This document shows positions 1 to 63,415 of a stretch of DNA of 64,000 nt, one piece after another. Source of the stretch: Dictyobacter arantiisoli (GTDB taxonomy: Bacteria > Chloroflexota > Ktedonobacteria > Ktedonobacterales > Ktedonobacteraceae). The position numbers and the translations under genes are program-made. The notes below the pieces were generated by a model. That model made no database searches and was not told the origin of the DNA. It saw only the letters and a program-made list of their open reading frames with translations. Positions within the stretch are counted from its first letter, which is position 1. Each line of letters opens with the position of its first letter. Location: assembly GCF_008326305.1 (NCBI RefSeq), contig NZ_BIXY01000015.1:1-64000 (forward strand), written 5' to 3'.

Positions 1-65
1 AAAATCTCCTTTACTACTTTTGCCTTAAATTCTGCCGTGTGTTGTTTTCTTTTTTGCTTTTCCAT
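1..65 (-). mobile_element. IS3-family transposase OrfA, N-terminal fragment running off the left edge
   Basis: Read on the minus strand from an ATG at 65, the first 21 codons give MEKQKRKQHTAEFKAKVVKE and continue off the window. That is the characteristic start of the helix-turn-helix OrfA of IS3-type elements (the ...YTAEFKAKVV... motif). Known family role: OrfA provides DNA binding and is frameshift-fused to the OrfB DDE transposase. The end of the element should lie roughly at 66-115, where the neighbouring TPR reading frame begins without a start codon. I could not define the terminal inverted repeat because the other end is outside the window. Confidence 0.75.
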
Positions 66-105
66 GAATCAATTTTATCTTACGAGCCAACTTTTTTCTG
101 TCTGA

Positions 106-798
106 ATTTCTAGGGGCATTATAGATATTGCAAATAAAATAAACCATCCGGCAACAATTGCAATCTCTTTACTAGGTAAAGGTACCGAGCTTGACCGATC
201 AGGAAAACATCAAGAAGCTATTGAATGTCTTGAAGAAGCACGAGACGAATCATTCAGAGCCAGCAAACATGTATCAGCCCTTATAAATGCCTATTTAGCA
301 CGTGTCTATGCAAGTAGTGGTCTATCTGAAAAATTTAAGCGTGCTATAAATACGGCTGAAAAGATAGCAACCGAAATCACGCTTTATTATGGAGATGGAA
401 CAGATTTTGTCTTTCACTCCCTTAGTGGGATACTCGCCGAGCGGAGCTATGGTTATTTAGAAATTAGAGAACCTCAAAGCACACTTGACATGAAAGCTCA
501 GATACAAAGACAAATAGCTGTAGAGGGTAATATATGGCTTGATGCGTGGATACCCTTAGACTGGGCGAGAGCCTACTTGATGCTAGGAGATATCAATAAA
601 AGCGTTGAAGCAAGTGAAGATTTTTACAAAAAGGCTACTGCAATAAGGTCACCACATGCAAAGAGCCGAGTATTTAGATTGTTGAATACTATGGAGGCAG
701 CCGGATATGCTGAAGAAGAGGCTGTAAAAAACTTTCGTAGGGAACTCTACGAGTCGTCACCAGGACAGGCTAATACAAACGACCTGTATATATTATAA
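106..798 (+). pseudogene. TPR-repeat protein, 5'-truncated by an IS element
   Basis: One open frame runs from just after a TGA at 103-105 to the TAA at 796-798 but has no plausible start until an internal ATG at 490. The translation before 490 is clearly protein-like: helical TPR-like stretches such as GKHQEAIECLEEARDESF and LARVYASSGLSEKFKRAINT. The frame begins right next to the 5' end of an IS3-type orfA, so the simplest reading is a TPR protein (in this lineage often the C-terminal half of an XRE-TPR regulator) whose N-terminal part was removed by the insertion. It ends in a strong hairpin that contains its stop codon. It is not expected to give a functional protein. Confidence 0.6.
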
Positions 799-1596: not shown

Positions 1597-1814
1597 AACC
1601 CCAACCTTAGAGCAGGACCGCTAAGTGCTAAAAATCAGACCACTTACAGGCTATAGTATGCTTCGCATGACTTCAGCGCGGCTCAGGGGTAATGCAATAG
1701 CAACCGTAGCCGCGCTGAAGTCACCCAAGGGTACCATAGCCTGTAAGTGGCAAGCGCAAGCGTCTGATTTTTTTTACGCACTTAGCGCCCTGAAGATACA
1801 TTGTTAGTTGGGTT
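1597..1814. other. Nested, multi-level inverted repeat (candidate structured RNA or cruciform)
   Basis: Helices found by eye, from outside in: 1597-1605/1807-1814 (AACCCCAAC with GTTGGGTT, one bulge), 1619-1628/1778-1787 (10 bp perfect), 1631-1640/1762-1771 (10 bp perfect), 1641-1654/1736-1749 (14 bp perfect) and 1669-1683/1708-1722 (15 bp perfect). Small side hairpins sit at the junctions (1658-1668, 1723-1732, 1754-1761). The two arms are perfectly paired in blocks but differ between blocks, so this is not a simple transposon terminal repeat. It lies between a hypothetical gene and a serine integrase promoter. The nominal 60-codon ORF inside it is a shadow of the palindrome. A single-strand origin, a transfer origin or a non-coding RNA are all possible. 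Confidence 0.7.
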
Positions 1815-1962
1815 AAGCGCCTCTGGCAGGACTTAGCACAACTAGGAGACAGCAGCTTTATTTATAGCTAATTCCATAATGGGAATCGTTTCTTACCCTT
1901 AGATGGCAGTGATAAAAGAGACATGCACACCCCTATAAACCAGCCTGTAGAGGGAGTTTACA

Positions 1963-1991
1963 TTGACAAATTGATGAATTTATGATAAAAT
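1963..1991 (+). promoter_or_regulatory. Promoter of the serine integrase
   Basis: TTGACA at 1963-1968 and TAAAAT at 1986-1991 have 17-bp spacing. Because the promoter overlaps an upstream in-frame ATG at 1982, the true integrase start must be downstream, at 2072. Confidence 0.55.
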
Positions 1992-2071
1992 ATTTACGTT
2001 ACCAGTGTTACCCCTCTAAGAGGGAGGATGCAATATATTTTAATGTCATTAGCATGAAAGGATGTCATACA

Positions 2072-3829
2072 ATGGCAGCAGATTACAACCAGAATGAAAA
2101 ATATAGAGGCTTACGCGCTTTAGAGTTTCTACGTGTTAGTTCAGTAGAACAAGAAAAAATGTATGGTTGGCCTCGACAACATGCAGAGATACAAAAGAAG
2201 TTAATTGACCCCTTGTCTTTAAGAATTGTAGATACATTACGAGATTCATATACAGGCTTAGAGTTTCAAGAACGCGAAGCGCTTCATGTTGTACTTGATA
2301 AGGCGAAAAAAGGCGAGTATGACATTTTAATCATGGATATGTTAGACCGACTTGGAAGAAAAGGACTAGAACGATAAATTTACATGCTTCAACTAAAAGA
2401 AGCCGGTATACGTGTTGTATCAGCAGATCCAGAAGATCATAGCGACGATGAGTCATCCTGGGGGGAATTAATACGTTATTTAAGAGGCAAAGCAGCAGAG
2501 GACGAAGTAAAGAATATACGTCATAGAACAATGGGAGGGAGACGAGCAAAAGCAACCGGAGACCCTGAAAAAGGAATACCCCCTATGCTTATATGTGGTG
2601 GTCATAGCCGATACGGTTATAAGTGGGTTACAAATGATAAGGGCCGAAAAATAGGAACAGAGCCAGATCATACTGTTATTTATGTTTCGCAAGACGGCAT
2701 TGAATGGACAGGTGTGGATGTAATCAAGTTCTTATTCCAATCATCAGCAAATGGGGCTACTATCAAGAGAATAGCCGTAACTTTGAATGAAATGGGCGTA
2801 CCGTCTCCATATAAGCTAAAAGGGATTCAGAGAAGGGATGCACATAAGGCAATATGGCAACCGTCAGCAATCGCACGTATGCTTCGAGACAAGGGATATG
2901 CAGGAGAAGTAACTTTATTTAAGGAGAAAGTAGTAGGAAAAAGATCGAACGCGAAAAGACCAGGAGCAAAAAGCGAAATTCGTGAAAAAACCGATCCCTC
3001 AGAACAAGTTACTATAGAAATTCCTAGCATTATATCAATAGAACTATACCAGCAGGTGCAGAAGCAGCTAGACAAAAATAAAAGGCAAGCCGGACGCAAT
3101 AACAAAAACCCTGAAGATTTTTTAATGCGTTCAGGGTTAGCTTTTTGTGGGTATTGTGGTTCTAGAATGATGGGCAAACGCCGAGTTCGTAAGAACAAAA
3201 ACGGAACAGAAACGCCTCTTTTTGGTTACACCTGCATAGGAAGATACGGCCAGTTAGAAAAATGTAAAGGTTGTTGGATAGACGCCAGAATAGTAGATAG
3301 GGCAACGTGGGAGAAAGTAATTGAAATCATTGATAATCCTGAAGTAGTTGACGAAGCAGTTACTAAAAAAAGAAAGAAAGACCCCACAGCAGGGAACCGA
3401 GTCAAGATAAAAACTAAGATCAAAGAGATTGAAGCCCAGCAGGAGACTTTTAGAACTCAGTTACGTGACCTTATGTTAAAAGGAGTACTTGACCAAGGGA
3501 CACAGGAATTTCTTTCAACAGAGCTAAAACAACTATCCGAAAGATTGCAGGAATGGAATACTAAACTTATAGAAAACGAGGATGTACATCAAGAATGGAA
3601 AAAAATTGAAGATAAGTTGAACGATGTACACAAAACTTGTAGACAACTAAGCGAGCAAATACACGATCCTGAGTATGCCCCAACATATCAAGAAAAGCGT
3701 GATTTAGTTGAATTTTTCAAAATCACAGCAACTATATGGAAAGCAGATCATAGCCCAAGATTCAAATTAGAATCGAATGTTGTTGATATTGTAACCGACC
3801 TCTCATGTCTGGCATGGCCGGTAACGTGA
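2072..3829 (+). pseudogene. Large serine recombinase (integrase) interrupted by one in-frame stop
   Basis: Start at 2072 (MAADYNQ) is chosen for the GAAAGGA ribosome site 8 nt upstream. The N-terminal resolvase domain has the catalytic-serine motif FLRVSSVEQE and the DMLDRLGR motif of the family. The frame is then cut by a TAA at 2375-2377 and continues in the same frame (IYMLQLKEAGIRVVS), exactly where a serine recombinase should continue, so one codon (for example CAA to TAA) is the only damage seen. The second part carries the recombinase domain, a zinc ribbon (FCGYCGSRMMGK ... CIGRYGQLEKCKGC) and a C-terminal coiled coil (about 3420-3660), as expected of phage or ICE integrases. Its last codons overlap the symporter gene fragment, placing it at an attachment junction. 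Confidence 0.85.
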
Positions 3830-3830
3830 C
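3795..3830. other. Putative attachment-site junction (attR) between element and symporter gene
   Basis: The integrase frame and the symporter frame overlap here (the integrase stop is at 3827-3829; symporter homology begins about 3803). Serine integrases insert at short cores, and the gene sits immediately beside one end. The crossover core cannot be fixed without the left junction, which lies outside the window. Confidence 0.4.
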
Positions 3831-4401
3831 CGCCTTCAATACTGTCTGGACGTATGACCTTTACAAATCGTATATCAGGAAAGAGGCCCCCGACAACCAC
3901 TATCTGTGGATGGGTCGTATTGTGACAGTAGTGGGTATTCTTTTGAGTGTTGCCACGGCCTATATCGCGTCAAATTTCTCGAGTATCATGGACTATGTAC
4001 AGGCGTTATTCTCGATCTTTAATGCTCCATTGCTTGCAACATTCTTGCTGGGAATGTTCTGGAAGCGTACAACACCCTGGGGTGGTTTCTGGGGCTTGCT
4101 GATTGGTACCATCTGCTCCATTGCCCTCTGGCTAATGGAACAGTCTCTCCATCTTTTCTCGCTGGGAAGTTCAGAAGGTTCAAGCATGTGGCGTGCCTTA
4201 ATTGCCTGGGTCGTCTGTCTGGCAGTGACCATAATTGTCTCCCTGTTTACCAAACCAAAGCCTGACTCCGAACTGGTGGGTCTGGTTTACAGCATGACGC
4301 CAAAAGCAACGGTAGTTGAAACTGTCTGGTACAAGAGGCCAAAGGTGCTGGCTGGGGCCGCATTATTGATCTTCGTTGTGCTAAACATTATCTTCTTCTA
4401 A
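3805..4401 (+). pseudogene. Sodium/solute symporter (SSS family), C-terminal fragment
   Basis: The 198 residues match only the last third of an SSS/SLC5-type transporter: the GNVTAFNTVWTYDLYKSYIR segment that follows the conserved mid-protein helices, then about four to five membrane helices (GRIVTVVGILLSVATAYIAS, LFSIFNAPLLATFLLGMFW, GGFWGLLIGTICSIALW, ALIAWVVCLAVTIIVSLF, LAGAALLIFVVLNIIFF). Full-length members have about 500-550 residues and 13 helices. The missing N-terminal two thirds would lie left of the serine-integrase element. An internal ATG at 3805 gives an open frame but there is no ribosome site of its own and the product would lack the sodium and substrate sites. Confidence 0.75.
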
Positions 4402-4958: not shown

Positions 4959-5438
4959 ATGGCGGAAGCACGGCAGGAATTTCCCATAGAGACACAATTG
5001 AAGAAGGATATCCAGGATGCGCAACGAAATCGAGATCAATTGCGCCTGGATACGTTACGTATGGCTTTAGGTTCGATTCATAATCTTGAAGTTGCTCGTA
5101 CTGATCGCAAGCATGCAGAATTTGGACAACCACTAACCGAGGCCGATTGCATCAAGGTGCTTGAGCAAGAAGTAAAGAAGCGGAATCAGGCCATCCCTCT
5201 GTATAAGCAGGGTGGACGTACCGATCTAGCTGAAAAAGAGCAGCATGAGATGGAGATTTTGCAGGTATATCTGCAGTCCTCTCAAATGAGCGATGATGAG
5301 TTACAGGCTCTCATAACCCAGCTGATAGAGCTGCACGGTAAAGAGTTTCGTAAGGTGATGCCACTGGCAGCCAAAGAGACCAAAGGACGTGCCGATGGAG
5401 GGCGTGTGCAGCGATTGGTGAGAGAATTGACCCAATAA
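4959..5438 (+). CDS. GatB/YqeY domain protein
   Basis: This is a 159-residue full-length YqeY-type protein: IETQLKKDIQDAQRNRD at the start, LDTLRMALGSIHNLEVAR in the first helical bundle, the central KRNQAIPLYKQGGRTDLAEKE motif, and a C-terminal segment ending AAKETKGRADGGRVQRLV that matches the tRNA-binding tail shared with the GatB subunit of amidotransferases. The family is soluble and usually sits near translation genes; its exact biochemical role is not settled. AGGAG lies 9 nt before the ATG. It is a single-gene unit bounded by terminators. Confidence 0.9.
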   Translation: MAEARQEFPIETQLKKDIQDAQRNRDQLRLDTLRMALGSIHNLEVARTDRKHAEFGQPLTEADCIKVLEQEVKKRNQAIPLYKQGGRTDLAEKEQHEMEILQVYLQSSQMSDDELQALITQLIELHGKEFRKVMPLAAKETKGRADGGRVQRLVRELTQ

Positions 5439-5453
5439 GTAGATTGAGTTCAT

Positions 5454-5536
5454 TTTCCTTGCCTGGCAAAAGAAAAGCCCACCGGATAACAAGTATATTG
5501 TTGTTCGGTGGGCTTTTCTTTTGCCAGGCAAGGAAA
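5454..5536. terminator. Very long perfect hairpin after the YqeY gene
   Basis: There is a 31-bp uninterrupted stem (5454-5484/5506-5536) around a 21-nt loop, with an A-rich run on one arm and a T-rich run on the other, so it can act in both directions. Confidence 0.8.
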
Positions 5537-63045: not shown

Positions 63046-63415
63046 TGGTGGAGATGAGGGAGAGTTGAACTCCCTGTCCAAACGGCCCTACCGAGGAATG
63101 TACTACAGGTTTAGTCGATGTATTTCTTTATCGCCTTGGGCTCCCATCGACAGGATTCCTAAGCGTTGGCCCTCTAGTCTTTAGTGACAGTTAGAAGACG
63201 GTGGCTGCCACTGCACCTCGTGTGTATGACGCCTGGAACCGCCCCCACGAGGAAAAGGCGGGCAGACGTCGCATCGCTACTTCTTAGGCAGCGAAAGCGA
63301 ATTGTTGTGTTGCTGGTTTGGCAACTATGTTTTGTCGGTTGTTTAACGAGAGTGCGTACCGACACCTCGACCTGCAATTCTTCAATCCAACCGCCTGTCG
63401 AAACCCGACATCCCC
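63046..63415 (-). ncRNA. ssrA: Transfer-messenger RNA (tmRNA)
   Basis: On the minus strand the gene starts GGGGATGTCGGGTTTCGACA and ends CTCATCTCCACCA, the tRNA-like acceptor ends (GGGGAUG pairing with CAUCUCC) with encoded CCA, and the T-arm GGGAGTTCAACTCTCCC. The length is about 370 nt. The tag reading frame is at 63284-63322: resume codon GCC and AKPATQQFAFAA then TAA, a proteolysis tag with the usual hydrophobic end. It rescues stalled ribosomes with SmpB. The 3' end is adjacent to a hairpin terminator, and a promoter lies upstream. Confidence 0.96.

What the first reader, a model, noticed from the sequence alone, without database searches (positions are those of the whole stretch)
1597..1814. 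Four-level nested inverted repeat next to a serine integrase
Five helices (8-15 bp, most perfect) nest inside one another over 218 nt, with small hairpins at the junctions. This is more elaborate than any terminator in the window and is not a transposon end. It lies in an AT-rich mobile segment between an unknown small gene and an integrase promoter. It could be a single-strand replication origin, oriT, a retron-like or other structured RNA, or a recombination substrate.
Basis: seen in the sequence. Interest (0 to 1): 0.75.

Follow-up and report, generated by a model that had tools for sequence, protein, structure and literature searches.

The report
Nested DNA hairpin hitch-hiking in mobile elements
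The elaborate hairpin is real: it is one copy of a roughly 250-base structured module, not in the Rfam library, that turns up inside many unrelated mobile elements of one bacterial family and keeps its shape while its sequence changes, so it is probably a small mobile or shared piece of folded DNA (or RNA) of unknown function.

Summary
Window 1619-1787 folds into a nested hairpin with mini-hairpins at the junctions, far beyond chance (z about -9 on one strand, -8 on the other). Two covariance models and BLAST found about 30 copies in 12 of 29 genomes of the window's bacterial family (Ktedonobacteraceae, from a matching public record) and none elsewhere in the phylum. On 22 distinct copies, 52 of 64 pairs change on both sides with pairing kept; no shuffle and no slid register comes near this. 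No Rfam family matches. A 3' part is conserved too, so the module is about 250 nt. It lies inside or next to unrelated mobile elements: serine-recombinase elements (this window), IS110 elements, a Tn554-like transposon, conjugative and phage-integrase elements, in either orientation. A related IS110 lacks it cleanly. G-U and A-C mismatches are about equally common, so there is no sign of selection for RNA wobble pairs. Best reading: a REPIN-like, non-autonomous hairpin module acting as folded DNA, moved in trans; the mobilising enzyme is not identified. A structured RNA shared by mobile elements remains the main rival. New variant of a known kind.

The parts
1619..1628 (+). P1 5' arm CGCTAAGTGC (pairs with 1778-1787)
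   Evidence: perfect 10-bp helix, sequence differs between contexts but pairs in each copy
1778..1787 (+). P1 3' arm GCACTTAGCG
1627..1635 (+). conserved basal motif GCTAAAAAT (5' side of the P1/P2 internal loop)
   Evidence: same in G035, G027 and G000:C120 copies
1767..1779 (+). conserved basal motif ATTTTTTTTACGC (3' side of the internal loop; ATTTTCTTCACGC or AATTTCTTCACGC elsewhere)
1630..1640 (+). P2 5' arm (pairs with 1762-1772)
1762..1772 (+). P2 3' arm
1640..1658 (+). P4 5' arm (pairs with 1732-1750)
1732..1750 (+). P4 3' arm
1658..1668 (+). junction mini-hairpin P5, ATGC-TTC-GCAT
   Evidence: sequence; equivalent hairpin in other copies
1723..1732 (+). junction mini-hairpin P7, ACCC-AA-GGGT
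   Evidence: sequence; equivalent hairpin in other copies
1755..1762 (+). junction mini-hairpin P3, CGC-AA-GCG
   Evidence: sequence; identical in the G035 copy
1668..1683 (+). P6 5' arm TGACTTCAGCGCGGCT (pairs with 1708-1723)
1708..1723 (+). P6 3' arm
1684..1707 (+). apical loop; the equivalent loop is split by a group II intron in two IS110-borne copies
1819..1856 (+). conserved 3' part of the module, GCCTCTGGCAGGACTTAGC...ACTAGGAGACAGCAG; in the class this motif with no mismatch occurs five times, four of them just downstream of such a hairpin
1982..3829 (+). large serine recombinase of the host element, broken by in-frame TAA at 2375-2377 (Resolvase, Recombinase and Zn-ribbon domains)
   Evidence: not part of the module
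3805..4401 (+). 3' half of a sodium:solute symporter gene split by the host element (other half on contig C20)
   Evidence: marks the element's right end

Best explanation
The feature is one copy of a roughly 250-nt structured module: nested hairpin P1-P2-P4-P6 with junction mini-hairpins, plus a short conserved 3' part. It is carried as a passenger or part inside many different mobile elements of Ktedonobacteraceae. Shown: the family, its covarying structure, its module-like boundaries, its occurrence in both orientations in unrelated elements, a clean absence in a related IS110, and a similar frequency of G-U and A-C mismatches in its helices. Inferred: it works as folded DNA (a hairpin formed when the strand is single, at a replication fork or during transfer). 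It spreads as a small non-autonomous unit moved in trans by a recombinase, transposase or HUH enzyme that reads the fold and not the arm sequences. In mode it would be like REPINs of the RAYT system, but with a different and larger fold. In this window the copy rides in an element inserted by a (now broken) serine recombinase into a symporter gene.
For: Copies: (G035). Covariation: 19 of 32 pairs on 9 copies; 17 of 28 pairs, score 0.449 against 0.147 shuffled; 52 of 64 pairs on 22 distinct copies, 92.7% of cells paired against 77.5% shuffled and about 40% when slid. Different host elements. Copies from different element types share only about 0 to +250 nt. IS110 type 1 carries it sense and type 2 antisense; a 79%-identical IS110 lacks it with the element's end intact. 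In the best-aligned helices (P2, inner P4, P6) 16 G-U against 14 A-C cells among 677 Watson-Crick; over all main helices 51 against 37, p 0.17. A group II intron sits at the same point of the apical loop in two copies; IIC introns are known to target DNA terminator and attC stem-loops (PMC4424553), but the class of this intron was not determined. Compensatory arm changes are reported for REPINs (PMC3116915).
Against: No mobilising enzyme was found. No target-site duplication or empty site with near-identical flanks was found; the IS110 comparison is between diverged elements. Copy number is low (1-8 per genome). Loops and the 3' part are conserved in sequence, as in functional RNAs. Arm complementarity could also be kept by template-switch repair without selection. 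Near-equal G-U and A-C counts argue against RNA only if the alignment is right at those cells.
Confidence: 0.42

Rival explanations
1. A structured non-coding RNA shared by mobile elements, transcribed from the host element, acting in trans or on the element (for example as an anti-defence or copy-control RNA).
For: Very strong covariation, conserved loops and a conserved 3' part, present in many element types as an accessory would be, near-exclusive association with mobile elements.
Against: No significant excess of G-U over A-C (51 to 37). No conserved sequence upstream of the hairpin that could be a promoter. Orientation relative to neighbouring genes is not fixed. No Rfam match.
Confidence: 0.3
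2. A bidirectional terminator or insulator that shields mobile elements from outside transcription.
For: Basal A and T tracts in the window's subfamily; some subfamily-B copies end in a short GC stem followed by T-rich sequence; position at element edges in IS110 elements.
Against: No intrinsic terminator predicted at 1200-2200; subfamily B lacks the T tract at the hairpin base; a terminator does not need this size, these loops or the 3' part.
Confidence: 0.12
3. A replication or transfer origin on single-stranded DNA (oriT, or a single-strand origin).
For: Copies next to VirD4 coupling-protein genes in G027 and G035, a relaxase gene in G027, and a RepSA-like initiator in G033.
Against: At least eight copies are in IS110 elements and three in Tn554-like elements, which need no such origin; the complete 6.9-kb G035 element has no relaxase or Rep gene recognised.
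Confidence: 0.1
4. Neutral relics: long inverted repeats kept perfect by template-switch repair, without any function.
For: Whole arms differ between copies yet pair perfectly; few half-way mismatches.
Against: Loop sequences, arm lengths, junction mini-hairpins and the 3' part are conserved across copies at 70-85% identity, which arm repair does not explain.
Confidence: 0.06

Closest known systems
REPINs / REP-BIME repeats with RAYT transposases
   Same: Small extragenic hairpin element, compensatory changes in arms, thought to move as single-stranded DNA in trans (PMC3116915).
   Different: REPINs are shorter and built from two conserved REP sequences, at high copy in extragenic space. This module is about 250 nt, nested with junction hairpins, 1-8 copies, carried within other mobile elements; no RAYT gene was recognised next to the copies examined.
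Integron attC sites
   Same: Folded single-strand recombination sites conserved in structure more than sequence (established knowledge); targets of group IIC introns (PMC4424553).
   Different: No attC core boxes recognised, no cassettes or integron integrase beside the copies examined.
IS110/IS1111 bridge RNA
   Same: Structured sequence in a non-coding end of IS110 elements, with internal loops (PMC11208160).
   Different: Found in many elements without IS110 and antisense in one IS110 type; one long nested hairpin; a related IS110 lacks it.
Large mobile-element RNAs of unknown function (GOLLD, ROOL)
   Same: Covarying structured sequence carried by mobile elements, function unknown (from my own knowledge; named in PMC12286853).
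   Different: Not homologous by Rfam scan; much smaller; RNA status not shown.

Membership tests
Any Rfam 15 family | score at or above a family's gathering cut-off | tested here: not met
   window scan gives only tmRNA far away; permissive scan of 1500-2000 gives only chance microRNA matches
REPIN / RAYT system | two inverted copies of a conserved short REP | tested here: not met
   arms differ completely between copies
REPIN / RAYT system | cognate RAYT in the genome | not tested
REPIN / RAYT system | many copies spread over extragenic space | tested here: not met
   1-8 copies per genome, nearly all in mobile elements
IS110 bridge RNA | always encoded in a non-coding end of an IS110 element | tested here: not met
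   many copies lack IS110 nearby, including this window
IS110 bridge RNA | two loops complementary to target and donor DNA | not tested
   not examined
Intrinsic terminator | GC stem followed by a run of T | tested here: not met
   no terminator called in 1200-2200; no T tract at the hairpin base in subfamily B
Retron msr-msd | adjacent reverse transcriptase gene | tested here: not met
   no reverse-transcriptase domain among the neighbouring genes that were scanned
oriT | adjacent relaxase or mobilisation genes | tested here: not met
   relaxase met at G027 only; most copies have none
attC site | core boxes RYYYAAC / GTTRRRY at the base and an integron context | tested here: inconclusive
   boxes judged absent by eye; no integron search made
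Structured RNA under wobble-pair selection | G-U clearly more frequent than A-C in helices | tested here: not met
   51 G-U against 37 A-C, p 0.17; 14 tRNAs gave 37 G-U and 0 A-C, though the tRNA finder favours this

The most novel reading that the evidence does not exclude
A new class of fold-defined module that unrelated mobile elements (insertion sequences, transposons, integrative and conjugative elements, phage-like elements) have each acquired and keep under structural selection, as a shared RNA or folded-DNA device, for example against a host defence or for exploiting a host factor.
Probability: 0.28. Interest if true: 0.8.

Novelty: new variant of a known kind. Interest (0 to 1): 0.58.

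Why it matters
It is a compact structured element, with very strong covariation and absent from Rfam, that links very different mobile elements of one bacterial family. If it moves by its fold, it is a new miniature mobile hairpin outside the RAYT model. If it is kept for a function, it points to something that many mobile elements in these bacteria need. Either way the set of copies and the two covariance models make it testable.

Tried and rejected
Exact DNA patterns and BLAST in IMG/VR, phage and plasmid collections: no copy. A first genome contigs pattern found nothing. A second, built on the basal motif GCTAAAAAT...ATTTTCTTCACGC, found 93 loci; of the 80 scanned with the first covariance model only one is a clear copy. 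The others include nested hairpins of Chryseobacterium and relatives that share the basal motif yet do not match the model and are not in Rfam; I treat them as unproven analogues. I considered Rfam 'skipping-rope' from memory, but no scan matched it. An IS110 bridge RNA was considered and dropped because copies occur without IS110. An insertion junction of the host element was checked: att junctions for the window (core AT, contigs C20/C15) and for a second valS copy (contigs C69/C120) were read, and the hairpin is not at either junction. A search for an empty site around the G026 copy gave no clean empty site.

Full report
WHAT IS THERE. Window 1619-1787 contains four helices nested in one another (P1, P2, P4, P6) with mini-hairpins at the junctions. 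The region folds far better than shuffled sequence on both strands (z -9.1 and -8.2). A short motif downstream (1819-1856) is kept. Rfam has no match.

FIRST RELATIVES. BLAST in 47 genomes of the class found one relative in G035. Read on the proper strand it has the same four levels with different arm sequences, the same GCTAAAAAT and CAAGCGCAAGCG pieces and the same 3' motif. A covariance model from these two (R1) found copies in G027, in a second place of the window's own genome (contig C120) and in G032. BLAST from the G027 copy opened a larger subfamily B, and a model of five B copies (R2) brought the total to about 30 in 12 genomes, all in one family (29 genomes held); none in the other 18 genomes of the class. 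A search of 400 genomes of the phylum gave no further genome, though only a few candidates per genome were scored there. The window's subfamily A and subfamily B are joined by the G027 copy, which both models find (R1 E 2.3e-16, R2 E 5.5e-13); R2 does not find the window itself at 1e-5.

COVARIATION. On nine copies of both subfamilies RNAalifold gives 32 pairs, 19 with compensatory changes. For P4 and P6, 94.5% of cells pair, 17 of 28 pairs change on both sides, and the covariation score is 0.449 against 0.147 (sd 0.027) in shuffles and 0.03-0.06 in slid registers. On 23 R2 matches (22 distinct) 52 of 64 pairs change on both sides, 92.7% of cells pair, score 0.417 against 0.148 (sd 0.009). That alignment was fitted to the model, but the slid controls fall to about 40% paired. 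P1 differs wholly between copies and still pairs, with 8-16 bp in six of nine copies, 4 in one and 3 in two.

RNA OR DNA. In functional RNA helices G-U wobble pairs normally far exceed A-C mismatches (established knowledge). Here there are 51 G-U and 37 A-C cells over the main helices (p 0.17), and 16 against 14 in the best-aligned helices P2, inner P4 and P6. No conserved sequence precedes the hairpin across element types, and its orientation relative to neighbouring genes varies. This favours a constraint on DNA, or on both strands alike, but does not prove it. Template-switch repair of inverted repeats could produce part of the covariation.

WHERE IT LIVES. Of about 30 copies, nearly all lie inside or within a few kb of mobile-element genes. 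Serine-recombinase elements: the window; G035, a 6.9-kb element splitting rtcB; G032 contig C9 (a weak model match); and by its position near an att junction the valS element of the own genome. IS110 elements: type 1, a homologous unit from -1670 to +300 of the hairpin start with the transposase on the same strand; type 2, a unit from -92 to +2220 with the transposase on the opposite strand. Tn554-like elements with two overlapping tyrosine recombinases, in G025 also a TnpB-like gene, including one in the window's own genome. VirD4 neighbours in G027 and G035 and a relaxase in G027. Phage-type integrases and a RepSA-like gene. For G026 and one G032 copy only short transposase-like fragments are near, not tested by profile. 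The background frequency of mobile genes in these genomes was not measured.

MODULE BOUNDARIES. Copies in different element types share only about 0 to +250 nt around the hairpin: hairpin plus the 3' part (GCCTCAAGCTCC..GGATGCTTGATGAGCCTNCGGCTC in subfamily B; GCCTCYGGCRGGACTTAGC in A). A type 1 IS110 relative in G032 (79% amino-acid identity) has the element's end but lacks the module. In two other type 1 copies a group II intron sits at the same point in the apical loop (Rfam Intron_gpII in one, the other judged by its shared 5' end); the two inserts are 93% identical over their first 184 nt, so this may be one event.

HOW IT MOST LIKELY WORKS. The parts that are shown are the family, the structure, the module boundaries and the association with mobile elements. 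The mechanism is inferred: a non-autonomous hairpin unit recognised by fold when single-stranded and moved in trans, comparable to REPINs (PMC3116915), where compensatory arm changes are also common. No mobilising enzyme was identified, and a structured RNA used by mobile elements is the main rival.

THE HOST ELEMENT IN THIS WINDOW. It splits a sodium:solute symporter gene; the other half is on contig C20. Joining the flanks suggests a core dinucleotide AT. The recombinase gene has an in-frame stop, so this copy is probably no longer mobile by its own enzyme.

LIMITS.

Noticed in passing
window 2375-2377: In-frame TAA inside the catalytic domain of the serine recombinase (frames 1982-2377 and 2384-3829 are one reading frame): a broken gene.
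   Followed up: partly
window 1-120 and L132 end (G000:C69): The window's left end is the edge of an IS3-like insertion sequence that also ends contig C69; the contig break is at this repeat. The IS type is judged by eye.
   Followed up: no
L132 (G000:C69) and L026 (G000:C120): A second copy of valS in the own genome is split by another element at GATCGCTG-GTT-ATCGCG; an intact valS is on contig C1.
   Followed up: partly
L029 719-9145: In G035 a 6.9-kb serine-recombinase element with Baseplate_J-like and FG-GAP genes splits rtcB.
   Followed up: partly
L155 and L156 (G025): Tn554-like pair of tyrosine recombinases followed by a TnpB-like gene (OrfB_IS605, Cas12f1-like TNB domain): an unusual combination, present twice.
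   Followed up: partly
L207 and L234: Group II intron inserted at the same point in the apical loop of the hairpin in two IS110 elements.
   Followed up: partly
L034, L049, L066, L077, L102 and others: Chryseobacterium and other Bacteroidota carry tandem or single nested hairpins with repeated C-TA-AAA / TTT-CTTAA-CG internal-loop motifs, not matched in Rfam; relation to the Ktedonobacteraceae module unproven.
   Followed up: partly
window 5453-5536: Long inverted repeat downstream of the gene at 4959-5438 (CCTTGCCTGGCAAAAGAAAAGCCCACCGG...), looks like a long-stem terminator.
   Followed up: no
window 63046-63415: tmRNA gene on the - strand.
   Followed up: no
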